Part shown: in pieces, positions 1 through 22,930 of the stretch
How positions within the stretch are numbered: position 1 is the stretch's first letter
How the letters are laid out: the number at the start of each line of letters is the position of its first letter
NCBI RefSeq assembly: GCF_026241095.1
Contig: NZ_JAPFGB010000013.1
Location: forward strand, 66,556-130,555
Source of the DNA: Saccharopolyspora sp. NFXS83
Lineage (GTDB): Bacteria > Actinomycetota > Actinomycetes > Mycobacteriales > Pseudonocardiaceae
Direction: 5' to 3'
DNA: 64,000 nt
The notes under the pieces: model-generated
Told to the model about the DNA's origin: nothing
What the model saw: the letters and a program-made list of their open reading frames with translations, nothing else
Databases searched by the model: none
Translations under genes and position numbers: made by a program

Positions 1-590
1 GCGGAGCCCGCGCGGAAGCCCGATCCCAAGCCGCAGCCCAAGCCGAAGGCGGAACAGCCCAAGCCGAAGGCGGAGCAGTCGAAGCCGCAGCCGAAGGAAC
101 AGCCGAAGCCCGAGGCGCAGCGGCAGGAGCGTCCGTCTGATCAGCTCTACGCCGCATTGAACGTAAAGGTCGGTGCTTCCCAGCGGGAGCTGGACCAAGC
201 GTGGCGCGCTATCGAGCTGCGTTATCCGCAGGACGAGCGGCTCTCCGCGGAGGATCAGCGGCGTTACCAGGAGGCGAAGGACGCGTTCTGGGTGTTGTCG
301 GACTCGGCGGAGCGGGCGCGGTACGACAGGGAGCACGCGGGGCGGAGCGCGGGGGATCGGTCGAAGGCCGACGCGCGGTCCAAGCCGGAGCCGAAGCCTG
401 CGCCCCAGCCGGAGCCGCAGGCCAAGCGCCAGTCGCAACCGCAGCCCGAGCCCAAGCCGCAGCCCAAGTCCGAGCCGAAGCCGGAATCGAAGCCCAAGCC
501 GGATCCGAAGCCTGAACCGAAGTCCGAGCCGAAGCCGGAACCCAAGCCGGAGCAGAAGTCCGAGCCGAAGCCGGAGCTGGACCCCAACCT
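1..590 (+). repeat. Pro/Lys/Glu-rich repeats flanking a J-like domain
   Basis: Two stretches (about 1-135 and 370-585) encode degenerate PEPKP, PKPEP and SEPKP units built from repeated ccgaag and cccaag codon pairs. They flank the HPD-less J-like segment and probably act as extended charged linkers. The first stretch runs off the left edge of the window, so its full extent is unknown. Confidence 0.85.
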
Positions 591-3500
591 GGCGTCGAAC
601 ACGGACCACTACGCCGTGCTGGGAGCCAAGCGCGACGAGGAGATCGCCGACATCAGGAAGAAGTGGCGCAAGCTGCTGCTGGCGAACCACCCGGACAAGA
701 ACCCCGGCAACAGGGAGGCGGCGGAGGCCAACACGGTCGCGATCAACAAGGCATGGGAGGTCTTGTCGGATCCGGAGCAGCGCGCGAGGTACGACGACAT
801 GCTCAAGCTGCATGAAATCCGGGCCCAATTCAACGCGGAGTACGGTGCCGGTCCTGGGCCTTCCCACCGAGCCGGACGCCGGCCCCCCGAGCGTCGGGGC
901 ACCGCCCCTGATGCCGGGACGCGGCCCCGGCACGAGCGTCCCCGCCGCCGGCAGACCGGGTTCGAGCAGGACACCCGGCGGGAACGCGAGCACACGCGCC
1001 CGAGCGCGGGGCCGAGCGTCTCACCGGAGGCTCTCGGTCTGGTGCGGGGTGAGTCGGAGTTCATCTCCGACGGGATGTCGTACTGGGAGGAAGTCTGGTT
1101 CCGCCCGAATCTCGTGCAGCAGCGGCCGATCTTCAGCCAGGCCCGGTTCGATCCGCGCGGCCGGGTCCCGATCGGCGTCAGCTTCGTCCGGACTCCGCTG
1201 GCGGACTTCTACACCAGCGTCGGCATGCCGTTGATGGACGGGGTGGTGCGGACGACCCCGGTCGAGGACCTGGCGGACGCGCTGCGGCAGGACCGGCCCC
1301 ACGGCACCGTGCAGCCGCTCTGGGGTGACCAGTACCCGATCGTCACCGACCTCCGGTCCGACTCCGACGGCGCGCACTTCAGCCTTCCCCCCGGGGCGGT
1401 GTACCTGCGCCGCAAGGCGCTGAACCAGCCGATGGAGGTCGTCGCGGGCGGCCAGAGCGCGGCCATCGTGCACCAGCACTCCCGGTACTTCCAGGACGCC
1501 TACTCGCTGAACCGGCAGGGCTCGCTGTTCGCGATGGCGTGCGCGATGACCCAGAACCAGCACGCGCTCTACTTCATGAGACAGCTGCGTTCGGCCGGAT
1601 TCCCGTTCCCGGCGGTTTTCCCCAGGGACATCTTGGGACTGCACCTGAGTTTCGACGAGAACCACCTCGTGGTCGGTGTCTCGAACAACCGCGGCTTCCG
1701 CAGCTTTTCCCGGGCCGATGCCCGGAACCCGATGCGGGCCCCGTCCGAGCCGTGGTTGGAGTCCCAGTACGACGAGTACGAGCTGCGACAGATCGAGCGC
1801 AATTACTGGGTGCACGGACTGCCGCCGCGACCGTCGACCGAACACCGCGGTACGGACGAGCAGCGGGCCCGGTTCGCCCTGTTGGAGTTCGATCCGCTGC
1901 GCGCGCCGCGTGGCGGTCCGTCGTCGACCGCCGAGCCGGAGGGCGAGGGAGGTCACCGGCCTGAGACGCCGCTGGGCATGGACGGGGTCGAGGCGGACGA
2001 GCTGACGACGTTCGCGACGGAGTCCGCCGAGCCGGAGACCGCTGACCAGGCCGGTGGACCGGAGCCCGAGTCTCCTTCGGAGGTGCTGGCCCGGGCGCGG
2101 GAGGACTTGGCGGAGTCGGACTCGACGCGGCCGGGCGGAGGTGGCGATCGCGTCGTCGCCGGGCGCGGCGTGGGACAGGGCGGTCTGGAGACGATCCCCG
2201 AGGACCCCGCCGACCACACCACCGAGCAGGACCCCGCCGAGCAGGACCCCGCCGAGCAGGACACGGCTCCGCAGAGCTCGATGGTCCAGCAGGCCCTGCT
2301 CGAACGACCCGAGGTCGACGGCGAGATCGACGGCACCCGGCTCCGATCGGTGATCAAGGACCTGGTGCGCGACCCGCAGTCGGACGACACCAAGTTGGAC
2401 GAGCGGGTCGACATCGCCTTCTCGGACCAGAACCTGAAGGACGACTTCCGTTCGGGTCTCGAAGGTCTGCACATCGTGGACCTCGGGGACAAGCTCGGCC
2501 GGGGCCCGCGCGTCGTGCTGGACGTGACCGAACTGTCCGAGCCGGGAAGCCCGCTGCCGGGCTGGGGCGACGTGCGGACCTCCGGCGGCCGGGAGCGGGT
2601 GCTGCACCAGGTCTCCAGCAGCCGAGCCAAGGCGCGCACCGAATCCGCGGCGGTCCGGGTGCCGACGCCGTTCGTGGCGGTGTCGGGCAAGCTCGCCGGG
2701 TCCGCCCACCAGCGCGGGTCCAGCATGGGCTCCGCCGCGAAGCGCGGTACGTCGATCGAGATCATCGAACCGGACCTGCCCGTCACCGGTGCCTCGCACC
2801 AGGCCCGCTACCGGATCTCGGTGACCTCGGCGGGACGCCGTACCCGGAAGTACTCCGGCGAGGCGCTGGTCGACCTGCGGCTGAAGTGGCCCCGGCGCGC
2901 GGAGCTGAACCCCGAAGGCGGTCCCCGGATGGGAAATCCGGAGGCGGTCGAGCACGTCGGCTTCTCCGGCGTCGGCGGCATCTACCAGGCGGTGCGCGAC
3001 AAGCTCGGTGGCGACTTCCGCCCGAACGACCCGGCGGAGCTCGAGTTCCGGACCGTGCTGACCGAACTCGGCGACGATGGCAAGTCGCTGCTCAGCGGCC
3101 AGGTGCTGCGCAAGGCCTTCGACTTCGCGAACGTCCGCAAGCCGGTCGACGTCCTCATCGGACTCGCCGATGTCCGGCCGCTGCGGGCAGCCACGGCCGA
3201 GGCGATGCTCATGCGCAAGGAGGTGACCGGCGGCGAGATCTCGTCCGGGGAAGGGATCACCTTCAAGCACGGCGGCGGCGGCGGAGTCGCGGGTGGGGAC
3301 GTCACCGGCGTGACCGGCCTGCTGTTCGGCCCCACCGGCGAGGAGATCCGGGCCAAGATGCACAGCGGCGCCTCAGTGGGGAGCCACGAGCACGAGACCG
3401 CGGAGAAGTACGAGGGCCCGCTCGACGAACACCTGGCGAACCTGAAGTTCGTGGTCGACGTCGTGCCCCGTAAGGTCCGTGGCTCGTCGGGCGATCCGAC

Positions 3501-12500: not shown

Positions 12501-15500
12501 CCCCTGGGCCGACCAGGCGGCCATCGTCGTGGCCTTGGCCGAGGATCACGGCCGGATGCTGGGCGATCTCGGCATCACGGCCAAGGGCGCGGAGAACGAA
12601 TTCGCCGCCTTGCTGGCGGAACTGCCGGAACAGCGGGCCCGGCAGCGGTCGGCGGGTGCGGCGATCACCGCGCGGTGGCAAGGCCAGGCGGACCCGAAGC
12701 GGATCGTCGCGGCCGTCGGTGAGCACGTGCCGGAGCTCCTGCACCGGGACGGGCCGCACTTCGGCGGCGAGCGGTCCAGCGTCCACCGGCAGCGGGTGCG
12801 GCGTTCGCTGGGGCGGTACCTGGAGCTGGCGCGGGAGGAATCGGATTCCGGCCGGGTGATCCCGGTGGACGCGGTGGTCAAGGCGATCCTGTTCCGCGGC
12901 ATCGGATCCGAGAGCGGGCGGCGGCAGCTGGCCGGTCGGTACGAGCAGTACAAGGACCAGTTCCCGCCCGAGCAGTTCTTCGTCGACGGCGTAGCGCCGG
13001 GTAGCGAGGAGTGGGAGCTCATCGCGAACGAATCCGCGGCGCACCAACGGCGGCTCGACGTGGTGCCGCACCACGCGGTGGCGTCCGAACTCGCTGGGCG
13101 CTACCGCGGCCTGTTCGACGGAGACGACCTGGACGCGGCTCGGGTGCTGGTGGCGTCGGATCCGATCGGGCGCTTCCACGACGGGTTCGCCGGTGCGGAT
13201 TCGGTGTTCGAGTTCGTCGCGCGCACAGCGCTGCGACTAACCGGCCGGGACCTACCGGGCCGGGGCCTGCCCGCCCGGCTCTCCGACGACGCGGTGCGGG
13301 ATGTGCAACGGACGTTCGTGGAGCTGCACCAGCTGCACCAGGCGGAGCGCGACGTAGCGGACTTCGAGACCGACGAGAACGACGATCTCGTCACCATGTC
13401 CGACGGCCGACTCTTCGCGTACTCGTCGCGCATCCGACGCGACCACGCCGATCTGGAGGCGCTGTTCGCCACGCCGAAGGCCGTGCGCGGTGCCTACGCA
13501 AAGCTCTTCCCCGCCGAGACGCGGAACACGACCGAGGACTCCCGGAGCCCTCGGGTGCCGAATCAGACCTCCGCACCTGAATCCGGGCCGGAGCCGGTGA
13601 GCTCGCGTCGCCAGCGGCCCTTGCTGCGGGACGACAGCTCCGATTCGGAGTACTCCGGCAGTTCCGATTCGGACGATGTCGATTCCGGTGGGCATGGCCG
13701 GGGACCGTGGGCGGGCAGCCCGGAGTTCCGGTCGCGCTATCCGGAGCTCGCGGGCGTGAACGCGGCGCGGTACGCGCGCGGTGAGACGGGGTACACGGAG
13801 AACTGCGTCCCGTCGGTTTTGGCGGCGTGGAAGTCGCGTGCCACGGGTGTCACGGTGGCAGCGGATCCGAGCGGCGCCTGGACGGTGGGGGCCGTGAACA
13901 AGCTTTTCCGCGCGGAGGCTGTGGAGGTGTCCTACAAAGCGGTGGTCGCGCATGCCAAACTGCAGCCCGAGGGCGCGGTTGGTATGCCGCTGGTGAACGG
14001 TCCGGTGCCGGGGATGTTGCACGGCATGATGATCGGGCTAGACGCTGATGGCCGGGTGGAGTGGTCGGATCCGCAGAGCGGGATGGATTACGAGCCGAAT
14101 CCGGAGGACGTGGTGGGGTATGTACCGCTCCGGGTTTCGGGTGCGACTCCGCTGGAGGGTGCGCCGCTGGACCGGAACCTGCTGATCGGGATGCAGAAGT
14201 ACCCCGTGGGCGAGAGCAGCGGTTCACGCGAGGGCGAGAGCAGCGGTTCACGCGGTGAGAGCAGCGGTTCACGCGAGGGCGGCCCCGGCCGACCGCGGGC
14301 GAGTCGCATCCGGGCTGCGTATGCCCGGTTGCGGCCGGGCTCGCAATTTAATCCGGGCTGGCTCACCTCCCAGGAAATGATGGATCGGGGGCTGGGCGAG
14401 TTTCCTTATGGTCACATTCGGCTCACCCAATTTCTGGAAGCGGCGGGCGCCGATAGGGGTCTTTTCGACGTGCCGAGAACTACTTCTCGTGGCAGGCTGC
14501 CGGATTATGCTGAGGCGTCTCCGGAGTACGGGGCGTCGATCAGTGTTCCGGGCACCGATGCTTCGTGGCGGCCGGTAGCGGCGGATTCTGTGGTGGGGGC
14601 GGATTACTTCGACAGCGATGCCGCGAATGCCGCGTTCGTGGTGAAGCACTTCGCGGAATTCTTGGGAGTCAACGCGTTGCCGTATGCCCGGAGGGTGCCG
14701 GGGCACACGCGCAACGGCGGGTGGTCCGTGCTGGCCGGCGCGTTGACGGCGGAGCGCGGGACGACCGTGGCGGCGCCGTCGGGGGAGGCGATGCTGATAG
14801 AGGAGTTCGAGCTCCTGCACGGTCAGCTGCTGCTCCCGAATCTCATGCAGGAAGCGGAAGCCGTCATCTTCGAGGGTGACCCCGACCATCGCGCGGCGTT
14901 GCGGGATGCCCCGTTCTCCAATCGTCGTTGTGACGACGCGTTGGAACAGGCCCGCGAGGCTGAGGACGAATCGATCCTGCATACTTACACGTGGACGAAT
15001 GCAACCAACTCAGAGGTGCGCGACGCGTGCGACGCGGTCAGGGATCGGTTTGCCTCGGCGCGGCTAAAGATCGATATGGCGCGGAGCATCATTAATGGCT
15101 GGCCGCCGAGGGTGTTGTGCGCAACGTACGACCAGGTTCTCGACAGCATGCGCGATGACCCGAATTCGGTGACGCGAGCGGTGTACATCCAGAACCGCGA
15201 CGAAGACCTGCACATCGTGCTGCTGCTGAGGAAACCGAGTGAGGACGGCGGGAAAGCCTTCTACTTCTTCGACCCGCACACCGGGTTGATGGCTCCGGCG
15301 CGCCCGGACAACGTCGTCGGTGACCTCGGGCTGCTCCGGGAGCATCCCGGTATGGACTTGGGGTTAGATCTGATGTCGGAGAACAAGCTGCAGTTTTCCG
15401 GCCCGGTGGGGGTTCCGTCCGGGTCGGGTAGGCGCGCGCTGGTCGATGTGCTGGAGGGGCGCGGCTTGCGATCTCTGAGCCGGGAACTGCTCGCGCGGTT

Positions 15501-18500
15501 GCGGGGGCCGAGGGTTTCTTCGGCGTCGGCGCGGGTCGAGCCGCCCGCGTACAGCCCGCCGACCGGGGAGCCGCCGAGCTTCGATGCGGTGGAGGCGGAG
15601 GATTTCGCGGCCTTCGCGCGGGACTTCCCGCTCTTGGCGGGGGTGAACGGGGAGAAGTACCGGAGTGGTGAGACGGGGTACACGGAGAACTGCGTGCCGT
15701 CGGTGCAGGCGGCGTGGGAGTCGGAGGGCGCCGGGATCACGGTGGCCGCGGGTCCGAGCGGCGCCTGGACGGTGCGGGAAATTCGCGATCTTTTCAATGC
15801 GTGGCCTGTGGCGGCGTCCTACGACCGGTTGGTCGCGCATGTCGAACGGCAGCCCGAGGGGGCGTCGGGCATGGTGCTGCTGCGCACTGAGGTGCGGGGG
15901 ATGCTGCACGCCGCTCTGATCGAGCGTGGCGCTGATGGCCGGGTGAGGTGGCCGGATCCGCAGCGCGGGGTGGAGGTCGAGCCGAAGCCGGACGAGGTGG
16001 TCGGGTATCTGCCGAACTTGGGCTCGGGTGCGACTCCGTTGGCGGGCGTGCCGCTGCCCCAGGACCTGGTGGTCGGGACGCTGCGGCCTGACGCCAGCGG
16101 TGCGCGCGCTGGTGAGGGCGGCTCGTCGTCGAGCCGTCGCGAGCGATTCCTTCAAGTGCTGCGGCGGCCGGAGCGGAGCGGACCGACGTCCGCCGGTGCG
16201 CCGGGGTCGCGGGGGCCGTTCGGCCGGTTGCTGGAGAGTTCCGTTCCGGGCGTGTCCGGAGGCGCGAACCCGGCTCAGGGCGTGCCCCCGCCGTACACCA
16301 GGATCTCGCCGAGTCACGCGGAGTTGGGGCTGCCTCCGCACTATTCCGAGCTGCCGGACGACGGCGAGCCGGTTCGTCCGGAAGGTGGTACGGAATTCGG
16401 GCGTCCGAGGCTGCTGAACGGCGCGCTCACGAGGGCGAGCTTCGCCAGCCCGGCGGATGCTGATGCCTTCATCAGGGCGACGTTCCCGACGCTGCTCGGG
16501 ATCAACCCGGGAGGCCGGCGTGTGAACAGTTGCGGCCCGTCGCTGATCGCGACGATGCTGACGCTGGCCGATGGTGTGACGGTGGCCATGGACGCGGACG
16601 GCCCGATGACCGTCGGACACCTGCAGCAGCGGGTTGTGGAGCCGCTCATGCAGCGGTCTCTCGCTGAGTTGGAGGCGGTGTTCTACGCGGCGGACCCCCA
16701 ACGGCAGCGGAGTGCCCGCAACCTCTCCATCGCGGAGCGCATCGACGCCTTGCGGGCGCGCCACGAGCAATTCGGCGAAGAGGGCTACGGCTTGTCGGAT
16801 GAGCAGGCGCAGCGAATGGAGGAATTGCCTGAGCGCCAGTGGCAGCGAGAGGTCAATGCGCTGTACCGGGAGTGGAATGGCGTGCGGGCCAACATCGACG
16901 ACTTGCAGCGGTTGCATGAGCACCCGCCAGAGGGGGTTGAGGCCTCGTTCGACGAGGTGGTCGCGCACCTGCGCAGGTTGCCGAACCAGAAGGCACCGGT
17001 GTTCTTGCGCGGTTCAGAGGGCATGCTGCACGGCGTTGTCGGGGCGACCTCGCCGGACGGTGTGCTCATGTTCTTGGACGGCGACCGCGCGACAGTGCCT
17101 GACGCGAGCCCGCACACGGTAGTGGGAATGCTGCCGATGGTCGAGCCGATGGAAGGTGAGTTCACCGGCTCGAAGCTGGATCCGAAGCTGCTGGTCGGAG
17201 CCCCCGCCGGGCGAGCGGTGATGTCGGTGGATGCCGTCGGCCTCGACGATGCCGCGGCCCGCGCGCAGCACGAGATTCGCGCAGCCGCGGAAAAAGGTGT
17301 TCCGGTCAGCGCCGGGCACCTGGCCGCGCGCTTCGGGAAGAACCGACAGTGGGCGTTCGAGCAGATCGACGCCGTCGCGCGCGCCGACGTGCTGGCCGCC
17401 GTGGGAAGGCATCGGCCGCTGAGCCCGGACGACCTGGCGGAGAAGTACGGCAGGAACGCCGAGTGGGCGCAGGACGTGGTGTTCCGCGTCGCCGTCGATG
17501 TGTTCGGAGCCGAGCTGCGGGCGGCAGGGGAAGGTCACGTGTCCGGCGCCCGCTCGCTGTACGAGCGGTTCGGAGCCGAGGAGGAGCAAGGAACGAAATT
17601 CCTCGAAGCCGCTGTGGTGGCCGAGGTGCGGGCAGCCGCTGATCTCGGCCGCCCCTACGATCCCCACGAACTCAACAGGAGGCTCGTTGGTTACCAGCTT
17701 CCGGCGGCTACGCTCATCGCCATCGCGGGGGCGTTCGATGCGCGCGAGGCCGCCCGCGACGGTCGGCCGTACACCCCGGCCGCACTCGCTCGGAAGTACG
17801 GCTTGTCCTTGACCCGTGCGACGGAGTTGATCGGTTTCGCCGCGCTTGCGGACGCGCGGGAGGCCATCGATGGCGGCGGTTCCATCACGGTTGCCGACCT
17901 GGCCACTCGATACGGCATGAGCCGTCGTTGGGCGTTCGAGCGGATCGAGGACGCTCGCGACACCTCGGGACTCGTGCAGCCGTGGCCGTTCCGGCGGGTT
18001 TCCCGGCCGTTGGCGGACGGCCTCGGCACCGTATCGGCGGCGGCCCGGCAGGCACGTGCGGAGGTGCGCGCAGCAGCCGCTGACAAGCGACCGCTCACCG
18101 CGGAGGAGTTGGCCGAGAGCTTCGGCCAACCACTAGCGTGGGCCTTCGACCAGATCGATCACGTCGCTCACGTCGACGTGATCGAAGCGGCAGGGCGTGG
18201 CGAGCGGTACCGCCCCGAAGCACTGGCCGCCAATTACGGCCTGGACATCCGGTGGGCTCATCGCCGGATCAGCGACGCGTTCGCGCTCGAGCAGGACAAG
18301 AAGGACGCCGCCGTCGCGCAGATTCGGCGGTACGCCGACACCGGTCAACTGTTCGGGGAAGAGACGCGAAGTCAATTGGCCGCCGCCGTGGCGCTGGTTC
18401 GGCGGTTCGTCGGCACCGGTCGCTCGTTCGGGGAAGAGACGCAACGACAAGTGGCCGCCAAGTTCGACCTGCGTCCGGAGACGGTGACGGACTTGATCGA

Positions 18501-20784
18501 TGAGGCCGCGCGGCAGGACGTGATCGACCTCAATCAGAGCTTCCCGGGCGAGCCCCGAAACATGGCCGATCCCGAAGGGCTGGCCGAGCGTTACGCCAGG
18601 TCCACGGACTGGGCCAACGAGCAGATCCGCGCCGCCTTGGCCCGGGACGCGATGGAGAAGTCCGCCGCCCGCCGCGTGCGAGACGCTTCCGGTTTTATCC
18701 GCGCGGACGAGATGAGCGCGGCGCTGGCGGCGGCAAGGGCCTTGGCACTGCGCACTCCGTTCGACGAACTGCACCGCAGGCGGCTCGTTAACGCCTTTCA
18801 GTCCGGCGGCATCATGGATTACGAGCGCGAGCGCGATACCGATGACTTCGTCGTCGAGTCCGATGACGACTCCGATAGCGAATCCGATGACGACTCCGGC
18901 AGCGAATCCCGCGTGGGCGGAATCACCGCGAGAAGTTTCGCGAGTCGCCTGAAGATCAGCGTGGATCACGCTGCGGAGCAGATCAGGTCGGCGGCGAGCC
19001 TCCTCGCCCGCGCGGCGGCGCAAGAGCACGTGCCCTACTCGGCTGACGAACTGGGCGAGAGGTTCGGCAAGGATTCCAGGTGGGGTTTCTACCGCATCGG
19101 TGCCGCGATCCGTGCCGACGCCCGCGATTTTGGGTTCGACACCGCCGCCTTGGCCGAGCGGTACGGCATCAGCGTCGCGGCGGTCGAGCACCATCTCGAC
19201 CCGGATCCTCTTGCCGACGTTCGCGTGGCGAGCGACCGCATGGTGCGCAATTTCGGCTCCCTCGACGCCGATGGATGGAAGCGGTGGGTGAAATCTCTGC
19301 ATCCTTCTGACCGCAAGCTCGACAGGTTGACCGAATCCCTCGGTCATAGCCGGGAAGGCGGACTGTTCTGGATCGGTATCGCTATATTGGAGGATGCCCA
19401 ATTGGGGCATTCGGCTGCGGCCCTGGCCGAGCTGTACGCGATCGACGAGGCGGAGGCCGAACACCTGGTGAAGACGGCGACCGCGCTCACGGGCTTGCGT
19501 TTGCTGAACACCAATTTGGGACAAGAAAATACCTTCAACCGCCTGCAGGAGCTCACCGGCAGGCCGGTGGAATGGCTCCACGAGCGGATGGAGGATATCG
19601 CCGTCTACGGTCCGCGCGGTGGCGATCTCGCTACGCACAATAAGCCCAGGTTTACCGCCTTCGCGCTGGGTCGCATCACGCATATTAAGAAGATGCCGAG
19701 AAACAGCACGCTGGAACGGATCAATCTCGCGGCGGAGGCTGACCTGCTTCCCCGGCCCGGCGTGGAGCCGTACACCGCGGAGGAACTCGCCAAGCGCTAC
19801 CACATGGTCGTCCGCTGGGGTGCGGACCGGATCTTGCATGCCGCGCGCGATGATGCCCGCGCGGTGGTGCGCAACGGCGGGCCTGCGCGCACCGTCGAGG
19901 CGCTCGCGCGGAGGCGCGGTATCGGCCGCGATGTGGCGGAGCGAGCCATCGCCGCTGCCGTGTTCGACGATGCGCACGCCGCAGGTCAGTCCCACAACGT
20001 CGCGGCGTTCGCCCAGCGTTACGGCCTCAGCGAGGAGGCGCTGGACCGGCATCGCGATGCGCTCGCCCGGCTCGACGTCCGCGAGGCGGCGGACTTCAAG
20101 CTGCCGATCAGCGACGTGGCGCTGGCCGAGAAGTACGACAGGGGACGGTCCTGGGCGATCGAGCAAATCGATGCCGCGGCGCAGGAGTTTGTGGCTGATG
20201 CCGCGGTGGCCAATCCATGGGGGCAGGCGAGCTTGGCCACGGTGTTCGGAATGGACGAGGAGCGGGAGCTGCGGGCCCGGCGCGCCGCCGCGCGAAACCA
20301 CGTGCGGGAGACGCTGGATCATGGCATGCGATGCCCCTCCAGATCTGACATGAAAACTGCTTTCCGGCTCAGTTTTGACGAGGCCGTAGACGCGATTGAC
20401 GAAATCAAGTTCGACCACATGCGGGAATCGCTGCGGAACGGTGACTGGTACTCCGCGCGTGATGTTGCCCGGCACTACCGAGTGGGCCATGCGGAGGTGC
20501 TTTCCGTCATCAGACGAATCGCGCCCAGCCGCAGTGACCGGCCCGGTCGTCTCTCGTATGCCCAGGTGGTCATGCAACTCGGCCTCGGCTATAACACTCT
20601 CCGCCATGCGGCGTTGGAGTACGTGCGCGCGCAACCCTACTTGGGCGAGCCATGTACTCCCGAAGACCTGGTCGAGCTGTCCGAAGACCTGGTCGAGCTG
20701 TTCCGCCTGAAACGGCACGATGCCGAGGGAATGGTCGACTACGTCAAGAACGCACCGAGCGATTCGGATTACGAGTCTTCCTAG
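1..20784 (+). CDS. Giant multi-domain polymorphic-toxin-like protein (5' end outside window)
   Basis: The frame is open from base 1 to the TAG at 20782-20784, giving at least 6927 residues; the true start lies upstream. Residues below are counted from base 1. Order seen: Pro/Lys/Glu repeats (1-45), J-like domain without HPD (about 47-115), a second Pro/Lys/Glu tract (116-197), J domain with H230-P-D (about 201-275), a conserved actinobacterial giant-protein region with one Cys in a MACAM context (about 340-633), long beta-rich segments (about 770-2350), metzincin-like domain (about 2957-3360), ADP-ribosyltransferase domain (about 3655-3800), helical region, four papain-like modules (about 4575-5735) and an HTH-like repeat array (about 5746-6924). 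The mix of protease, ADP-ribosyltransferase and deamidase folds resembles polymorphic toxins. A type VII secretion-associated gene lies just downstream. No signal peptide can be judged because the N-terminus is missing. Its biological role is inferred. Confidence 0.9.
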   Translation, partial: AEPARKPDPKPQPKPKAEQPKPKAEQSKPQPKEQPKPEAQRQERPSDQLYAALNVKVGASQRELDQAWRAIELRYPQDERLSAEDQRRYQEAKDAFWVLSDSAERARYDREHAGRSAGDRSKADARSKPEPKPAPQPEPQAKRQSQPQPEPKPQPKSEPKPESKPKPDPKPEPKSEPKPEPKPEQKSEPKPELDPNLASNTDHYAVLGAKRDEEIADIRKKWRKLLLANHPDKNPGNREAAEANTVAINKAWEVLSDPEQRARYDDMLKLHEIRAQFNAEYGAGPGPSHRAGRRPPERRGTAPDAGTRPRHERPRRRQTGFEQDTRREREHTRPSAGPSVSPEALGLVRGESEFISDGMSYWEEVWFRPNLVQQRPIFSQARFDPRGRVPIGVSFVRTPLADFYTSVGMPLMDGVVRTTPVEDLADALRQDRPHGTVQPLWGDQYPIVTDLRSDSDGAHFSLPPGAVYLRRKALNQPMEVVAGGQSAAIVHQHSRYFQDAYSLNRQGSLFAMACAMTQNQHALYFMRQLRSAGFPFPAVFPRDILGLHLSFDENHLVVGVSNNRGFRSFSRADARNPMRAPSEPWLESQYDEYELRQIERNYWVHGLPPRPSTEHRGTDEQRARFALLEFDPLRAPRGGPSSTAEPEGEGGHRPETPLGMDGVEADELTTFATESAEPETADQAGGPEPESPSEVLARAREDLAESDSTRPGGGGDRVVAGRGVGQGGLETIPEDPADHTTEQDPAEQDPAEQDTAPQSSMVQQALLERPEVDGEIDGTRLRSVIKDLVRDPQSDDTKLDERVDIAFSDQNLKDDFRSGLEGLHIVDLGDKLGRGPRVVLDVTELSEPGSPLPGWGDVRTSGGRERVLHQVSSSRAKARTESAAVRVPTPFVAVSGKLAGSAHQRGSSMGSAAKRGTSIEIIEPDLPVTGASHQARYRISVTSAGRRTRKYSGEALVDLRLKWPRRAELNPEGGPRMGNPEAVEHVGFSGVGGIYQAVRDKLGGDFRPNDPAELEFRTVLTELGDDGKSLLSGQVLRKAFDFANVRKPVDVLIGLADVRPLRAATAEAMLMRKEVTGGEISSGEGITFKHGGGGGVAGGDVTGVTGLLFGPTGEEIRAKMHSGASVGSHEHETAEKYEGPLDEHLANLKFVVDVVPRKVRGSSGDPTLVAGTVTSRLKPHNAEQHGWTNSASTTPTTAPEQDTDADQARNAPDRVDAVHRLPKATVDALVGPALSELAVQGHVAARELPRLAQRMRRFVQDHAREIARGEGVRFPLSALHDAAPDVFFHGTMDLDRAKPAVEEPGTTIGGNLVSTHQRITGQDKDRTRAGGVAGMGYVDNLWPGLPGAVLEHTNLAGDTIARKVADEQSFPGKGRVRRYGYPAEFTTRLGGTWSNPGRALPTVTGAVDVEVSDSPGTVLDESPRDDAPEHTWQDGAAEQHGREGDLPAGYDLDSLAPVPGLRRTTADMLGGIPTHRWREWLKLPFIGRTPARFDEHRRHWLRLNAGRSNEPGEDALNERNAGLGGLEVFSSPEERMAGFSGAVLLGDRRELKTHNHGGLAGTRELHGDISLRTRLSNPTPLRVDDHHWFADKSASETARAVSVEKSLRGRLRAGLFAFFPVNKEFSVGAAAGADLSYTRGSGKAETGIAKSTDEAGHYERGYLIRYDGAHTAQTSVRRRWESTLRRLHDGTPVRATKSLQQPGYAQVWVPASAIDQVGELAEADIAKLRPEDAERYRRARGASDPAETTPESAPAEQDRDGLRPESPDALPFAGLAEAEVANPRSDDPGSDREAEPSEHGPRAESPREAPAVRPPDDVGRGRGDITAHRLKAGGELADGISRELARWSRAAGRSTTTPFGSVAAVLRALRQADASVTPPPAQRLFDSLNDRMMRDSVWPVLGSLKGDPVLREMINGGWPLLVVTDQAFGRVEQLVVVRGNLGGGHYHQTIEQRSDPGAPERSAGHELTRQKREYDTRGFLGTLTAAVIAYPAKNGAPAAVLAPGGAVTYNTVSQPEHVREHTTGAFAEQRGSSHQFVHDLDVEIDVYPYASPGAYRKLLPDWFSGLNSPVLSEPWSGRFTVPDAIRSTVPVEETVPLDSPAPEPLAEQSFSLRHDQRQRGVPLGFSANAAVHVGRFEAPNLRAVLKGLVLGGDQEGRPRLRPGDAYSLLTEMHVDKLRTNLSASMSEQGYQAELTSGPLARVVLKAGLTQRKLHQVIDGSLKPSAVEERLVKWAADQGLDWGTTFTLQFREQNIHDSNFRPIQQAADFENVGGERKRKQSTALSAKIKAANTEHRTMYLVSAVPRWRLEPSYRGKGNPSAWNQPISTGRDHPIPLLVDRQGLIDLGFEVPGSDAHDRAQVSERDELSGTGNQDENELLVESAEHPIWSGPGSRQDSDPVFDQPSDQQEPSPRGELGREDSEADPASPPAVQADPASDHEIEVRFDEGRTLPLGMRSRDLDDLEDPENENRWMVPDGAEVVRLAQARDPESPNYRQGWDQLTPAQSWALMAAELRGAQFHQRDRRRAITRIRRLNQRFGASYPDSEQARAEIAAAAHEKLKSWPIAQNLFPHALASDGNSGPAPLMRLLAEGQPVQNGWERGVLEGTDASHRANVEWWFGYSSAFQQGDGTTAADPSEMPRYGAVIPPNRTEGTAVQWGTVVLHWNDDVRARTTFTPGDTGLALSDDANANTVKYTDKEHLYTLLAYGDEQLVRHLVAEATDFRYDPELAGAPGPSTHDYLEAQIHGPLDLSFAEKVVINWGRVSAHEGTQPSLTRAEAEQLAADLRSARPELTVELGKELGEPGEADAAEQDRVRRLYGLAPDRNLDEHELAVARELDRSAGGGPFARHAGREDLIRLLTGDDGSGLDDETATRLLSEHFDTAVRRDVADSAPGADVSDSDADSAPLDRAEEDGQDDPVAGDEPRGSTRDAAAQPSSPSADRAVEDARVSPEDPEWRSARVHVVSADGLAPSFEVRRVTSGGERFLAATVRLSLRPGAGVRPDQVAALHRSLLDAAERRVNDAGTKFPTGDFAGARFVLDVQRDDRAGGAAHAGFTVVDGPASDGQWSLDSTGDELLDGVLQRLGAPPAEDGADVLGPERLSGIASSVEGSWPIHPDPRLREDHPARSAGFDVAEYDAAREQAAVATVDADLRLPFSPVGQGPRAYFDVRRFDVGGERVVEGTLRLDLDPAAGVTDEQVDGVWRSTVFGVNYLVNSQGLLFPEGAELAGERLLVRAERAAGDSAHRRMAVTSPGARAQDDRLPVGKSPLIYAHEVLHRFGLRDENAGERRLPAGLLQHIRNHKQLVARHMAEWGGVMRHAHNTGTNVMGGIDARDLTVAPHVRSRHLSQLGRVISGALASPTSYRGPDHEPTGQHAPEPSSDDDDPVARFNERRLRRMLAEVNDYLAVREPDSTHIWRGADGQDRRGSEREWGDLLDRGVNLLKQWNAEHGAERSLRQPYVLENRVETLKRELELGRRGHRVVEKINPAVDHPDQPTTRRLKWLIHDVVDHATWSKSWLDQMGDTLGDIGAGTEHRGAHLRIQRGFRRLFAELYAWRAEAISGQPIDPDRYASLAQLYSGLKSLEDSYESEFAQVSSSLERFLAKKSDIRVKDSVFSDTAAEFDVPGRRVSAIRPANALDAAVRPVDPSGLRMIELSAGPGGMLWRTDDELLYREDDRPYQAVFRLGVVPWEESVLPSSLDDYQATLGQRTSFVSVSRRKEFSAEWGDHRYDFEDEIRESDRIQVFEIDAPGGIDLVTSLNRYAMPKQQEVVFPGGVRPEFIRGVELRYDDGRVEYVRNPAYRSHPASAQPSPSVAPVVPRGQVSGPGLGVAGVSYPGPSRPGLLADPEPGRDRPLPPVVHRGEFEVETFGGQPHVRLYTVVSAAQLPQLDVLSNEPTAASVGDVQQDPVTGKITVLTSQVGRPLSVIAGRPLSAVQLLSAAEDVLGEVLPWRSVNPPVIRSYLAPLDVVRKLSTDAAAREQFPHQHDGRTVNVWPKAGPNLFTVPQEALPGLARELVPGSMVTYTSGTGRDGLLRGDWAGAVEHVDGLRDRLGVPRTDRELAPNWRAWPSLEELETGSTWQSRRIARGLRQHYSTWLELVSPSRRDAAVELREGDPVVPIDERTEELRDFLDDHDLGDRLDSCADHHGSTPARPCELDDFMERTVRPWADQAAIVVALAEDHGRMLGDLGITAKGAENEFAALLAELPEQRARQRSAGAAITARWQGQADPKRIVAAVGEHVPELLHRDGPHFGGERSSVHRQRVRRSLGRYLELAREESDSGRVIPVDAVVKAILFRGIGSESGRRQLAGRYEQYKDQFPPEQFFVDGVAPGSEEWELIANESAAHQRRLDVVPHHAVASELAGRYRGLFDGDDLDAARVLVASDPIGRFHDGFAGADSVFEFVARTALRLTGRDLPGRGLPARLSDDAVRDVQRTFVELHQLHQAERDVADFETDENDDLVTMSDGRLFAYSSRIRRDHADLEALFATPKAVRGAYAKLFPAETRNTTEDSRSPRVPNQTSAPESGPEPVSSRRQRPLLRDDSSDSEYSGSSDSDDVDSGGHGRGPWAGSPEFRSRYPELAGVNAARYARGETGYTENCVPSVLAAWKSRATGVTVAADPSGAWTVGAVNKLFRAEAVEVSYKAVVAHAKLQPEGAVGMPLVNGPVPGMLHGMMIGLDADGRVEWSDPQSGMDYEPNPEDVVGYVPLRVSGATPLEGAPLDRNLLIGMQKYPVGESSGSREGESSGSRGESSGSREGGPGRPRASRIRAAYARLRPGSQFNPGWLTSQEMMDRGLGEFPYGHIRLTQFLEAAGADRGLFDVPRTTSRGRLPDYAEASPEYGASISVPGTDASWRPVAADSVVGADYFDSDAANAAFVVKHFAEFLGVNALPYARRVPGHTRNGGWSVLAGALTAERGTTVAAPSGEAMLIEEFELLHGQLLLPNLMQEAEAVIFEGDPDHRAALRDAPFSNRRCDDALEQAREAEDESILHTYTWTNATNSEVRDACDAVRDRFASARLKIDMARSIINGWPPRVLCATYDQVLDSMRDDPNSVTRAVYIQNRDEDLHIVLLLRKPSEDGGKAFYFFDPHTGLMAPARPDNVVGDLGLLREHPGMDLGLDLMSENKLQFSGPVGVPSGSGRRALVDVLEGRGLRSLSRELLARLRGPRVSSASARVEPPAYSPPTGEPPSFDAVEAEDFAAFARDFPLLAGVNGEKYRSGETGYTENCVPSVQAAWESEGAGITVAAGPSGAWTVREIRDLFNAWPVAASYDRLVAHVERQPEGASGMVLLRTEVRGMLHAALIERGADGRVRWPDPQRGVEVEPKPDEVVGYLPNLGSGATPLAGVPLPQDLVVGTLRPDASGARAGEGGSSSSRRERFLQVLRRPERSGPTSAGAPGSRGPFGRLLESSVPGVSGGANPAQGVPPPYTRISPSHAELGLPPHYSELPDDGEPVRPEGGTEFGRPRLLNGALTRASFASPADADAFIRATFPTLLGINPGGRRVNSCGPSLIATMLTLADGVTVAMDADGPMTVGHLQQRVVEPLMQRSLAELEAVFYAADPQRQRSARNLSIAERIDALRARHEQFGEEGYGLSDEQAQRMEELPERQWQREVNALYREWNGVRANIDDLQRLHEHPPEGVEASFDEVVAHLRRLPNQKAPVFLRGSEGMLHGVVGATSPDGVLMFLDGDRATVPDASPHTVVGMLPMVEPMEGEFTGSKLDPKLLVGAPAGRAVMSVDAVGLDDAAARAQHEIRAAAEKGVPVSAGHLAARFGKNRQWAFEQIDAVARADVLAAVGRHRPLSPDDLAEKYGRNAEWAQDVVFRVAVDVFGAELRAAGEGHVSGARSLYERFGAEEEQGTKFLEAAVVAEVRAAADLGRPYDPHELNRRLVGYQLPAATLIAIAGAFDAREAARDGRPYTPAALARKYGLSLTRATELIGFAALADAREAIDGGGSITVADLATRYGMSRRWAFERIEDARDTSGLVQPWPFRRVSRPLADGLGTVSAAARQARAEVRAAAADKRPLTAEELAESFGQPLAWAFDQIDHVAHVDVIEAAGRGERYRPEALAANYGLDIRWAHRRISDAFALEQDKKDAAVAQIRRYADTGQLFGEETRSQLAAAVALVRRFVGTGRSFGEETQRQVAAKFDLRPETVTDLIDEAARQDVIDLNQSFPGEPRNMADPEGLAERYARSTDWANEQIRAALARDAMEKSAARRVRDASGFIRADEMSAALAAARALALRTPFDELHRRRLVNAFQSGGIMDYERERDTDDFVVESDDDSDSESDDDSGSESRVGGITARSFASRLKISVDHAAEQIRSAASLLARAAAQEHVPYSADELGERFGKDSRWGFYRIGAAIRADARDFGFDTAALAERYGISVAAVEHHLDPDPLADVRVASDRMVRNFGSLDADGWKRWVKSLHPSDRKLDRLTESLGHSREGGLFWIGIAILEDAQLGHSAAALAELYAIDEAEAEHLVKTATALTGLRLLNTNLGQENTFNRLQELTGRPVEWLHERMEDIAVYGPRGGDLATHNKPRFTAFALGRITHIKKMPRNSTLERINLAAEADLLPRPGVEPYTAEELAKRYHMVVRWGADRILHAARDDARAVVRNGGPARTVEALARRRGIGRDVAERAIAAAVFDDAHAAGQSHNVAAFAQRYGLSEEALDRHRDALARLDVREAADFKLPISDVALAEKYDRGRSWAIEQIDAAAQEFVADAAVANPWGQASLATVFGMDEERELRARRAAARNHVRETLDHGMRCPSRSDMKTAFRLSFDEAVDAIDEIKFDHMRESLRNGDWYSARDVARHYRVGHAEVLSVIRRIAPSRSDRPGRLSYAQVVMQLGLGYNTLRHAALEYVRAQPYLGEPCTPEDLVELSEDLVELFRLKRHDAEGMVDYVKNAPSDSDYESS
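139..825 (+). other. Tandem J-like domains (one HPD-less, one with HPD)
   Basis: Within the giant frame, 139-345 encodes a J-like helical segment (LYAALNV, then FWVLSDSAERARYD) whose expected HPD is replaced by YPQD. The second copy, about 601-825, has DHYAVLG, then NHPDKNPGN with HPD at 688-696, and ends AWEVLSDPEQRARYDD. J domains recruit and stimulate Hsp70. The second copy should be competent by motif, while the first is probably structural or degenerate. J domains on a toxin-like giant protein may serve chaperone-dependent folding or targeting, which is inference. Confidence 0.8.
8870..10080 (+). other. Metzincin-like zinc protease domain inside the giant protein
   Basis: Two similar beta-rich units of about 100 residues (FEVRR..GGERF at about 8913 and FDVRR..GGERV at about 9500) precede the motif HEVLHRFGLRDE. 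His codons are at 9817 and 9829 and the catalytic Glu codon at 9820 (residues H3273, E3274, H3277, with D3283 further on). A downstream NVMGG (Met codon 9982) is placed like a metzincin Met-turn. HExxHxxGxxD is a known zinc ligand pattern, with Asp as the third ligand in some families. Catalytic activity is inferred from these motifs only. Confidence 0.7.
10960..11400 (+). other. Pierisin/scabin-like ADP-ribosyltransferase domain
   Basis: The three signature elements of the R-S-E class are in order: LLYREDDRP (Arg codon 11020), TSFVSVSRR (SVS at 11143-11151, in place of STS) and KQQEVVFPGG (Gln codon 11302, Glu codon 11308, the QxE turn). The segment FEIDAPGGIDL between the last two is also typical of the family. 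Family members transfer ADP-ribose from NAD+, and pierisin and scabin modify guanine in DNA. The target here is unknown. A helical segment precedes the domain (about 10150-10900). Confidence 0.75.
13720..14210 (+). other. Papain-like deamidase module 1
   Basis: The sequence TENCVPS puts a Cys at codon 13804. GMLHGMM gives a His at codon 14020, and WSDPQSG gives an Asp at codon 14068. This Cys-His-Asp order with a DPQ(S/T)G turn matches the papain-fold toxin glutamine deamidase type (PF15644-like). Module 3 is nearly a copy of it, so the pair arose by tandem duplication. A serine/glycine-rich linker made of short DNA repeats follows. Confidence 0.65.
14212..14275 (+). repeat. Three 19-bp direct repeats in the giant gene
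   Basis: The unit gagagcagcggttcacgcg occurs perfectly at 14212-14230, 14236-14254 and 14257-14275. It encodes GESSGSR units in the linker after papain-like module 1. Perfect identity suggests recent slippage or expansion. Confidence 0.9.
14610..15420 (+). other. Papain-like module 2, catalytic Cys replaced
   Basis: The position aligned with NCVPS in modules 1 and 3 reads NGGWS; the Cys codon is replaced by Gly at 14716. The later elements remain: LHIVLL (His codon 15211) and FFDPHTG (Asp codon 15271). An extra insert of about 120 residues lies between the nucleophile position and the His. By motif this module is probably catalytically dead and may bind a substrate or an immunity protein. 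Confidence 0.6.
15600..16090 (+). other. Papain-like deamidase module 3
   Basis: TENCVPSVQ has Cys codon 15691, GMLHAAL has His codon 15907 and WPDPQRG has Asp codon 15955. The module matches module 1 closely over its length, including GETGYTENC and PSGAWTV. The three putative catalytic residues are present. Confidence 0.65.
16450..17190 (+). other. Papain-like deamidase module 4
   Basis: The sequence NSCGPSL has Cys codon 16531, GMLHGVV has His codon 17029 and MFLDGDR has Asp codon 17077. The module is more diverged than 1 and 3. It carries a charged helical insert of about 100 residues (about 16630-16920) in the same place as the insert in module 2. It retains the Cys-His-Asp set. Confidence 0.6.
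18322..18471 (+). repeat. 75-bp imperfect tandem duplication
   Basis: Two adjacent 75-bp copies, 18322-18396 and 18397-18471, share the stretch ttcggggaagagacgc and encode RRY..TGQLFGEET and RRF..TGRSFGEET. This is a local duplication inside the HTH-like array. Confidence 0.8.
20660..20701 (+). repeat. Perfect 21-bp tandem duplication near the C-terminus
   Basis: Two identical 21-bp copies (20660-20680 and 20681-20701) encode the duplicated heptad-like stretch EDLVELS-EDLVELF shortly before the stop codon. It looks like recent slippage. Confidence 0.9.
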
Positions 20785-20914: not shown

Positions 20915-21001
20915 GTCACCCGATACGGGTCGAGCCCTCGCCGTCCACGATGACGAGGACTTCCCGGGCAACGAAGATTGCCACGAACGACCGAGGTGAT
21001 G

Positions 21002-22312: not shown

Positions 22313-22930
22313 GTGGACGAGCAGGCCAGGACCGACGAGCAGATCTGGGACGACGCGCTGGCCGACGCGGCTGAGCGCGCGGAGTTCGGGGAGGGCGATC
22401 GGTGGTATTTCCTGCTCGACCCCGCTTGGGAGCAGGAGGACGATCCGCCGCCCGCGGCCGTGGTCGGCGGCTGGTTCGTGGACGGCGCCGGCGAGACGGC
22501 CCTGTTCCGGGCCAATCCGAGCTACGAACCGTCCCGGCCAGGTCTGCCGACCGATCCGGTCGACGCCGCCCTCCAATTGGCGGTCGAGGACCGGATCGAC
22601 GGCGCCGAGGTGCTGGAGCGGCTCTCGCAGGTGGTGCTGGCGCTAGCGGTCGATGAGGAGAACAAGACGGTGGTGACCACCTCTCCCGACGACGTGCTCT
22701 CGGTGCTCGTGGCCACGTCCCCGGCGCACCAGCGCCGGGTGCCGGAAGCGCGGTGGGTGGAGGTGACCGTCGACGAACTGGCCGATGGGCTGCCGGAGTC
22801 CGGCCTCGACGTGCTGCTGAACCCCAACGCTCCGGCGTCGATGCGGGTCGAGGCCGGAGCGCTCAAGGACGCGTTCGCGACCGGGGCCGGCGACGCTGCC
22901 GGTGAACACGAGACGGTGCGGACTCGCTGA
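22313..22930 (+). CDS. Type VII secretion system-associated protein (SseB-like)
   Basis: The protein has 205 residues. The start GTG at 22313 follows GAGGAG at 22302-22307, in preference to the earlier GTG at 22286. The N-terminal block WYFLLDPAWEQ..PP..VVGGWFVD and then FRANPSYEPSRP is the pattern I know from proteins annotated as type VII secretion system-associated in actinomycetes. The C-terminal half (VLVATSPAH..VPEARW..VTVDEL..GLDVLLNPNAPASM) resembles an SseB-type domain. It lies 30 bp after the preceding gene, consistent with co-transcription. The context suggests that the giant protein upstream is a type VII substrate, which is inference. Confidence 0.6.
   Translation: MDEQARTDEQIWDDALADAAERAEFGEGDRWYFLLDPAWEQEDDPPPAAVVGGWFVDGAGETALFRANPSYEPSRPGLPTDPVDAALQLAVEDRIDGAEVLERLSQVVLALAVDEENKTVVTTSPDDVLSVLVATSPAHQRRVPEARWVEVTVDELADGLPESGLDVLLNPNAPASMRVEAGALKDAFATGAGDAAGEHETVRTR

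What the first reader, a model, noticed from the sequence alone, without database searches (positions are those of the whole stretch)
1..20784. A giant protein combines J domains, a protease, an ADP-ribosyltransferase, four papain-like modules and an HTH-like array
At least 6927 residues in one frame carry three unrelated toxin-type catalytic folds plus chaperone-recruiting J domains. Polymorphic toxins usually carry one C-terminal effector. Several effector modules in series, followed by a long repeat array, suggest a multi-effector weapon or a self-processing polyprotein cut by its own metzincin. Motifs are seen directly and the role is inference.
Basis: partly seen in the sequence, partly recalled or inferred. 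Interest (0 to 1): 0.9.

Follow-up and report, generated by a model that had tools for sequence, protein, structure and literature searches.

The report
Giant multi-enzyme protein beside secretion genes
A soil-type bacterium carries one gene for a protein of roughly ten thousand amino acids, placed at the end of a secretion-machine gene cluster and followed by a likely protective gene; it looks like several enzyme weapons strung on one chain, a larger and odder version of a kind already described.

Summary
The giant frame is real. The window holds the last 6,927 residues; about 3,350 more lie upstream of a 236-base N run, beginning with a WXG100-like domain. Two same-genus single-contig genomes have uninterrupted homologous frames of 10,947 and 8,149 residues. 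The gene ends an ESX-type (type VII) secretion operon. The next gene has Imm35 and papain-like domains; its relatives in five Streptomyces loci follow ordinary-sized frames with one C-terminal Tox-PL1. Domain claims: one true J domain (a second lacks HPD); a Scabin/pierisin-type ADP-ribosyltransferase (strong); four papain-like modules in the window and four upstream (seven of eight with Cys, His and Asp); a DUF3626/SopF-like module, the best conserved stretch measured. The metalloprotease has no profile match, but its motif recurs in 8 of 12 giants, far above chance. The C-terminal array is an irregular set of 38-residue helix-turn-helix-like units, scattered over broken frames in one congener and absent in another. 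Best reading: an ESX-exported multi-effector giant of the class Zhang et al. 2012 reported, in a new architecture. Export, toxicity and self-cleavage are unproven.

The parts
1..20784 (+). C-terminal 6,927 residues of the giant protein (5' part lies upstream of a 236-base N run, from ATG at L004:9704 = G000:C5:56259)
   Evidence: open frame; N run; homologous frames of 10,947 and 8,149 aa
139..336 (+). degenerate J-like domain (no HPD); ends approximate
   Evidence: two DnaJ stretches, of which only the best has reported ends; sequence printed
604..795 (+). J domain with HPD (HPDK at 688-699)
   Evidence: Pfam DnaJ 3.7e-27
7870..8253 (+). DUF3626 module, SopF-like
   Evidence: Pfam 1.9e-5, 24.3 bits, below the 27-bit gathering score; PDB 7dn8 E 0.034; 94% and 84% identical to G003 and G001 over aa 2430-2890
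9388..10110 (+). metzincin-like metalloprotease candidate, HExxHxxGxxDE at 9817-9852, TNVMGG at 9973-9990
   Evidence: motif kept in G003 and G001 and recurring in other giants; no profile match
11014..11406 (+). Scabin/pierisin-type ADP-ribosyltransferase (R in LLYREDDRP, SVS, QQE)
   Evidence: Pfam Scabin-like 6.3e-22; PDB matches; NCBIfam NF041482 1.7e-8, below cut-off
13657..14145 (+). papain-like (Tox-PL1) module 5, Cys-His-Asp present
   Evidence: this module was a seed of the profile
14569..15342 (+). papain-like module 6, catalytic Cys replaced by Gly
15565..16032 (+). papain-like module 7, Cys-His-Asp present
   Evidence: Pfam Gln_amidase 2.5e-10; (also a seed)
16411..17148 (+). papain-like module 8 with an insertion; Cys in the first half, His and Asp in the second
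   Evidence: not a seed; not aligned across the insertion
17269..20526 (+). array of 38-residue helix-turn-helix-like units (13 above 10 bits, irregularly spaced)
20999..22282 (+). neighbour gene: Imm35 and papain-like (Gln_amidase) domains, likely immunity or partner protein
   Evidence: Pfam Imm35 1.2e-30, Gln_amidase 2.1e-23; relatives after giants
22313..22930 (+). type VII secretion system-associated protein
   Evidence: NCBIfam NF033532, 149.9 bits, cut-off 85

Best explanation
The gene encodes a substrate of about 10,300 residues of the ESX-type (T7SSa) machine encoded just upstream. Its WXG100-like N-terminus takes it to the EccC translocase. The chain carries several effector enzymes (Tox-PL1 papain-like modules, a Scabin/pierisin-type ADP-ribosyltransferase, a SopF-like DUF3626 module, probably a metalloprotease) that act on competing or grazing cells, while the Imm35/papain-like neighbour protects the producer from, or escorts, the papain-like modules. 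Shown here: the operon, the domains, the partner gene in part of the relatives, catalytic residues largely kept, constraint on the sequence. Inferred: export, toxicity, protection, target. Unproven: that modules are cut free. The HTH-like array is most likely a variable binding or spacer segment rather than the killing part.
For: WXG100_2 at the N-terminus, 32.4 bits, cut-off 27. The order EccC-EccD-EccB-908aa-EccA-YbaB-364aa-giant-Imm35 gene is found, as far as the fetched stretches reach, in 5 of 10 relatives examined: G003, G001, G176, G132, G048. EccC and EccB are over their NCBIfam cut-offs, EccD over its Pfam cut-off; two WXG100 genes lie in the cluster. The Imm35 gene is 65-91% identical in those five. 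Zhang 2012 says in its text that Imm35 is associated only with Tox-PL1, though its table also lists Ntox40. In 5 Streptomyces loci of 38 found (L087, L088, L089, L094, L096, the last cut by the contig end) and in S. endophytica L084 a frame of 437-800 aa with a single Tox-PL1 at or near its end precedes the Imm35 gene. 34 of 43 papain-like modules in six giants have aligned Cys, His and Asp. dN/dS against G003 is 0.53 for aa 192-5125, against 0.10-0.34 for EccC, EccD, EccB, EccA, the Imm35 gene and the 205-aa gene.
Against: No secretion or toxicity datum. A chain above a megadalton is far larger than T7SS substrates I recall. The YxxxD/E signal is not constant: present in the N-terminal part of own, G003, G001 and G132, absent from the first 300 aa of G176 and G048. 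The 364-aa gene before the giant, which I first took for a WXG partner, has no family match and no WxG or YxxxD/E motif. In 5 of 10 relatives' stretches (G017, G104, G159, G055, G194) no Imm35 gene was found at 1e-5. The papain-like profile found no module in the giants of G104, G055, G017, G194 and the longer G159 frame, and one in the other G159 frame, so these modules are not general. No ADP-ribosylglycohydrolase lies on the window's contig; other ART immunity families were not sought. The Imm35 neighbour has Cys97, His176 and Asp191 kept in 6 of 6, so it could be an enzyme. In 24 of 38 loci with the Imm35 gene the longest upstream frame has no Tox-PL1 match.
Confidence: 0.68

Rival explanations
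1. Self-processing polyprotein: the papain-like modules (and perhaps the metzincin) cut the exported chain into free enzymes.
For: Zhang 2012 proposes internal Tox-PL1 copies as releasing peptidases (passages). Modules sit among proline-rich linkers and other enzymes and mostly keep Cys-His-Asp. The metzincin motif recurs in 8 of 12 giants, with a Met-turn-like match within 150 aa in 7 of the 9 cases, of which those of G048 are poor.
Against: Tox-PL1 at the C-terminus of ordinary-sized Streptomyces frames is by position the likely toxin; Pfam names the family glutamine deamidase. Eight copies are more than processing needs. No cleavage data.
Confidence: 0.25
2. A weapon or defence mainly against eukaryotes (grazing amoebae, fungi, insects).
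For: SopF, which a paper says contains DUF3626 (PMC6682159, passages), and the mosquitocidal toxin and pierisin, relatives of the ART, act on eukaryotic cells (recalled). No ADP-ribosylglycohydrolase on the contig.
Against: The Imm35-type partner argues for bacterial or kin targets of the papain-like modules; Scabin-type enzymes modify DNA bases and need not be eukaryote-specific (recalled).
Confidence: 0.22
3. The protein stays inside the producer (an intracellular conflict or phage-defence scaffold) and is not exported.
For: A true J domain and HTH-like units are features of cytoplasmic proteins (recalled); large polyvalent proteins combine such enzymes (PMC5512222, listing and passages).
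Against: WXG100-like N-terminus and place in an ESX operon; no PHROGs match in the ten stretches tried, which did not include the J domain, ART or papain-like modules. The defence library (PADLOC) was not searched.
Confidence: 0.1
4. Artefact: two or more genes fused by assembly or frame error.
For: An N run interrupts the gene in this assembly and the two sides are not in one frame as the Ns stand.
Against: Uninterrupted frames of 10,947 and 8,149 aa in single-contig genomes, and of 8,308, 12,169, 12,488 and 5,857 aa in other genera.
Confidence: 0.02

Closest known systems
Giant multi-toxin proteins of actinobacteria (Zhang et al. 2012, PMC3482391)
   Same: More than 10,000 residues possible; several effector domains in one chain, including ADP-ribosyltransferases and peptidases; pierisin-like ART noted in similar actinobacterial toxins.
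   Different: The described example has two lethal-factor-like metallopeptidases, two caspases, three ARTs and MCF1-SHE. Here: eight Tox-PL1, Scabin-like ART, DUF3626, J domain, HTH-like array. In the held text of that paper (300,000 of 357,715 characters) 'DnaJ', 'J domain', 'DUF3626' and 'helix-turn-helix' have 0 occurrences; 'HTH' occurs only for a toxin domain Tox-HTH, which was not compared with the array.
WXG-type Tox-PL1 polymorphic toxins with Imm35
   Same: WXG-type N-terminus, Tox-PL1 with NC-H-DxQ, Imm35-containing gene next door.
   Different: The simple members seen here are frames of 437-800 residues with one Tox-PL1 at or near the C-terminus; this has eight, plus other enzymes and a different C-terminus.
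Scabin / pierisin / mosquitocidal-type ADP-ribosyltransferases
   Same: Whole Pfam Scabin-like domain matched, 1-130 of 130; Arg and QxE motif kept.
   Different: Embedded in the middle of a giant chain; the STS motif (recalled) reads S-V-S.
SopF (DUF3626)
   Same: Weak but aligned match to PDB 7dn8 over 116 profile positions, including the EAxIHG stretch. That 7dn8 is SopF is recalled, not from a call.
   Different: Score under Pfam's gathering cut-off; actinobacterial, not a lone type III effector.
Polyvalent proteins of phages and conjugative elements (PMC5512222)
   Same: Many enzymes in one long chain, ART among them (passages).
   Different: Sits in an ESX secretion operon; no phage family matched in the ten stretches searched.

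Membership tests
T7SSa (ESX) substrate | WXG100-type N-terminal domain | tested here: met
   WXG100_2 32.4 bits, cut-off 27; in G132 19.8 bits, below it
T7SSa (ESX) substrate | encoded with ecc genes | tested here: met
T7SSa (ESX) substrate | YxxxD/E export signal | tested here: inconclusive
   found in own, G003, G001, G132; not in G176, G048
T7SSa (ESX) substrate | export shown | not testable with these tools
   needs secretome of wild type and eccC deletion
Polymorphic toxin system | immunity gene next to the toxin | tested here: met
   by family name only: Imm35 1.2e-30 in the next gene; kept in 5 of 10 relatives' stretches; protection not testable here
Polymorphic toxin system | C-terminal region exchanged between relatives | tested here: inconclusive
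   array in own, scattered over frames in G001, absent in G003; but the N-terminal third varies too
Tox-PL1 / Gln_amidase | NC-H-DxQ catalytic signature | tested here: met
   7 of 8 own modules have Cys, His and Asp: 6 aligned, module 8 read by eye across its insertion
J-domain protein | HPD tripeptide | tested here: met
   met in one of the two window copies, not in the other
Scabin-like ADP-ribosyltransferase | R, STS and QxE motifs over a full-length domain | tested here: met
   full domain, R and QQE; STS is SVS
DUF3626 | score above gathering cut-off | tested here: not met
   24.3 bits, cut-off 27: filed only as DUF3626/SopF-like
Metzincin | HExxHxxGxxH/D and Met-turn | tested here: met
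   HEVLHRFGLRDE and TNVMGG, kept in 3 of 3 congeners
Metzincin | fold | tested here: inconclusive
   model failed, mean pLDDT 37; no PDB match
Polyvalent proteins | carried by phage or conjugative element | tested here: inconclusive
   ESX operon context; no plasmid match for part of the array or the Imm35 gene; no PHROGs match in ten stretches; no scan for integrases was made

The most novel reading that the evidence does not exclude
The C-terminal array is a modular reader: 38-residue helix-turn-helix units whose most variable positions include 26, 27, 30, 31 and 34 of the unit, by spacing one face of the long, recognition-type helix, so that an exported giant effector could address a particular nucleic-acid or protein surface unit by unit, in principle a T7SS-delivered counterpart of repeat-based readers; one relative (G048) has 53 units in several blocks.
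Probability: 0.1. Interest if true: 0.88.

Novelty: new variant of a known kind. Interest (0 to 1): 0.52.

Why it matters
It links giant multi-toxin proteins of actinobacteria to a definite secretion machine in an operon kept across genera, so a plain question becomes testable: can an ESX system export a single chain of more than a megadalton, whole or in pieces? The array of helix-turn-helix-like units, with no match at E 0.001 among solved structures, and the conserved DUF3626 module are well-bounded targets. The Streptomyces relatives with one Tox-PL1 and a related partner gene give a simple system in which to test the role of the Imm35-type protein.

Tried and rejected
Frame or assembly artefact: rejected for the class; left open for this strain's N run.

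A third J domain: an upstream stretch looked J-like by eye but no DnaJ match was reported for it; not counted.

The 364-residue gene as a WXG partner: dropped, no family match and no WxG motif.

Metzincin confined to one genus: I held this and dropped it when the recount showed the full motif in G132, G048, G159 (twice), G055 and G194 as well; G176, G017, G104 and the longer G159 frame lack it.

Structure of DUF3626 plus metzincin: model useless (mean pLDDT 37), so no fold search with it. Fold search of the array: 350 PDB matches with E up to 10, none at 0.001; best Rickettsia Sca2 repeat domain 0.027, then designed repeats, chains of transcription initiation complexes (sigma factors, recalled) and TFIIB, with low TM-scores. 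Not used as evidence of function. A profile of the array against PDB gave 11 bc1-complex sequences, none with a stretch passing on its own: taken as chance.

Charge of the array: eight of nine stretches measured are net negative, -1.1 to -5.0 per 100 residues, one is +2.2 (two of the nine overlap); but the rest of the own chain in the window is -3.0 and of G048 -2.2, so most arrays are no more acidic than their proteins. Charge therefore gives no support to nucleic-acid binding and does not exclude it.

Plasmid searches with part of the array and with the Imm35 gene: no match.

ADP-ribosylglycohydrolase as ART immunity: 11 matches in the own genome, none on contig C5.

Large parts of the core (eight queries covering aa 321-670, 701-2400, 2931-3370 and 3801-4550) matched no Pfam family even at E 10.

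Literature: nine full-text searches. None of the listed titles is about this architecture; subscription journals are mostly not held, and the listings were cut (8 of 130, 12 of 120 and 10 of 63 shown).

Full report
WHAT IS THERE. The window starts inside a gene. The frame 1-20784 is open to the left edge. Upstream on the same contig a 236-base run of Ns ends at the base before window position 1, and before it the gene continues back to an ATG at L004:9704, about 3,353 residues. As the Ns stand the two sides are in different frames, but the length of an N run is usually an assembler's estimate, so this says nothing either way. Two same-genus single-contig genomes settle the class: G003 has one frame of 10,947 residues and G001 one of 8,149, both stop to stop and without Ns. 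Over about 5,000 columns they are 71% and 66% identical to the window protein. Other genera of the family have frames of 8,308, 12,169, 12,488 and 5,857 residues with related parts. Of 200 family genomes, 14 including the own have a match to the N-terminal domain at 1e-6, in 17 frames of 513 to 12,488 residues. A named record points to the family: a contig of Actinosynnema sp. ALI-1.44 has the same length as G132:C38 (258,398), and Actinosynnema is in Pseudonocardiaceae.

SURROUNDINGS. The giant closes an ESX-type cluster: two WXG100 genes, EccC, EccD, EccB, a 908-residue protein, an EccA-type ATPase fused to a beta-helix, a YbaB-like protein, a 364-residue protein without family match, the giant, then a 427-residue protein with Imm35 and papain-like domains and a 205-residue protein that NCBIfam calls type VII secretion system-associated. 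The EccA match is below its NCBIfam equivalog cut-off. Of ten relatives' stretches examined, five (G003, G001, G176, G132, G048) keep this order from the Ecc genes to the Imm35 gene, as far as the stretches reach. In the other five no Imm35 relative was found at 1e-5; G017, G104, G159 and G194 have the 205-residue family next to the giant, G017 and G104 have EccC on the other strand, and in G055 (20 kb fetched) only the YbaB gene matched.

DOMAINS. N-terminus: WXG100_2 over its cut-off. J domains: two DnaJ-like stretches in the window, one with HPD; G132 also has a strong J domain, 5.7e-22. ADP-ribosyltransferase: full-length Scabin-like match, 6.3e-22, with solved relatives mosquitocidal toxin, Scabin and pierisin; G017 matches aa 3397-4535, which include it, at 42%. 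DUF3626: 1.9e-5 but under the gathering score; its profile matches PDB 7dn8 and 7dn9 at 0.034 and 0.1, which I recall to be SopF structures; a SopF paper states that SopF contains DUF3626 (PMC6682159, passages read). Of the 13 stretches compared it is the best conserved, 94% and 84% identical to G003 and G001, 72% and 63% in G176 and G104; it is found in 10 of 200 family genomes including the own, and not in G132 or G048. Papain-like: eight modules in all, four upstream and four in the window, by a profile seeded with six of them. Pfam marks one in each half; some modules were cut by the ends of the query segments there. The two weak ones, 4857 and 5471, were not seeds. Over six giants 34 of 43 modules have aligned Cys, His and Asp; one module of a G159 frame was left out of that count, and the profile found none in G017, G104, G055, G194 and the longer G159 frame. 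In the own protein six are intact by alignment, 5471 by reading across its insertion, and 4857 has Gly for Cys. Metzincin: HExxHxxGxxDE plus TNVMGG, kept in three of three congeners, no profile support. The pattern HExxHxxGxx[HD] occurs 9 times in 8 of 12 giants, against 0.05 per shuffle of the pooled 108,149 residues, and G159, G055 and G194 follow it with SMMGG, SLMGR and TLMGN. In G132 and G048 it lies near the N-terminus, without a good Met-turn.

THE ARRAY. Residues about 5757-6842 hold 13 units above 10 bits; 9 units exceed 5 bits in an earlier profile against none in each of 20 shuffles. It is irregular: 5 of 12 successive steps in the own array are exactly 38 residues. The model of aa 5740-6115 from 13 sequences (mean pLDDT 79.5, pTM 0.60) shows a short helix, a turn and a long helix, repeated. 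No solved structure matches at 0.001. In seven array-bearing proteins, two of them partial frames, there are 175 units above 10 bits. The most variable positions are 30, 34, 26, 31, 9, 11 and 27 of the unit; five of these fall on one face of the long helix by their spacing, not from coordinates, and exposed residues vary in any such repeat, so this is weak. Charge decides nothing: eight of nine stretches are net negative, but mostly no more so than the rest of their proteins. At E 0.001 the array is found in 7 of 200 family genomes including the own, one of the seven (G211) by a single weak match; in samples of 296 class genomes (1e-8) and 396 phylum genomes (1e-6) only the own genome matched, with few candidates scored in each. 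In G001 its homologue is scattered over separate frames with a stop, and G003 has no match, so the giant can exist without it.

PARTNER GENE. Pfam marks Imm35 at 237-319 and Gln_amidase at 93-195 of the 427-residue neighbour; by eye it reads as two Imm35-like and two papain-like parts, the last degenerate. Cys97, His176 and Asp191 are invariant in six of six. Relatives at 1e-20 are in 21 of 200 family genomes including the own. Among 38 named loci (15 Pseudonocardiaceae, 23 Streptomyces), nine have an upstream frame of 2,459-3,333 residues running off the fetched stretch, ending 2 to 2,622 bases before the gene, and in 14 of 38 the longest upstream frame holds a papain-like match. One of the nine (L072) is the G132 record and two (L073, L075) lie on one contig. 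Five Streptomyces loci and one Saccharopolyspora locus show the simple form: a frame of 437-800 residues with a single Tox-PL1 at or near its end. In the other 24 of 38 the longest upstream frame shows no such match; the nearest gene was not examined there. The giant thus looks like an expanded form of a simple toxin-partner pair; that direction is inference.

SELECTION. By a simple count, dN/dS of aa 192-5125 of the giant against G003 is 0.53, with 0.10-0.34 for EccC, EccD, EccB, EccA, the Imm35 gene and the 205-residue gene against G003 and, except EccC, G001. dS is depressed by very high GC3, so only the comparison between genes matters. The giant is a constrained coding sequence that changes faster than its machine. 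Against G003 two stretches have dN above dS: the J domain (0.117 and 0.04) and aa 320-620 (0.183 and 0.14); against G001 they do not. Exchange between strains is one possible cause.

MECHANISM. The best-supported account is export by the ESX machine of a chain with several effector enzymes, protected or escorted by the Imm35-type neighbour. Export, toxicity, targets and cutting are inference. What would be truly new, a unit-by-unit reader at the C-terminus, is not excluded but has little positive support.

AGAINST WHAT IS KNOWN. Zhang et al. 2012 (passages and section 32 read) already describe giant actinobacterial proteins with several toxin domains, Tox-PL1 with WXG-type N-termini, the Imm35 pairing and pierisin-like ARTs in such proteins. 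The combination seen here, with the J domain, the DUF3626 core, eight Tox-PL1 modules, the array and the ESX operon, was not in the passages read nor in the listed titles of nine searches. I therefore call it a new variant of a known kind.

Noticed in passing
L004:1411-4137 (upstream of the window): The 908-residue ESX-operon protein has a conserved C-terminal part with a weak match to the effector XopAI (1.9e-6, 27.3 bits, cut-off 300) and a middle stretch that differs between relatives; possibly a second effector.
   Followed up: partly
L004:4363-7677: The EccA-type ATPase carries an N-terminal right-handed beta-helix (Pfam Beta_helix 3.2e-31); matches over nearly the whole length are found in relatives.
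   Followed up: no
window 8791-9330: A stretch before the metzincin candidate resembles its N-terminal half by eye but lacks HExxH; it may be a dead twin. No Pfam match.
   Followed up: partly
G001, around C1:1212484-1215556 (L023, L030): The array homologue is spread over different frames with a stop, as if decaying, while the rest of the giant is open. Not read through.
   Followed up: no
L064-L068 (G159:C15): Two very long frames, 12,218 and 9,019 residues, lie on one contig with an ESX cluster between them.
   Followed up: no
own genome C4:81351-85799: One frame of 1,902 residues holds three ADP-ribosylglycohydrolase matches in a row; 11 such matches in the genome in all.
   Followed up: no
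window 23056-24264 (- strand): A 402-residue protein with no Pfam match at 0.01 sits next to the cluster and is 64-69% identical in G001 and G003.
   Followed up: no
window 598-810 and 958-1860: Against G003, dN exceeds dS in the J domain and in aa 320-620, while the other 11 stretches compared have dN below dS.
   Followed up: no
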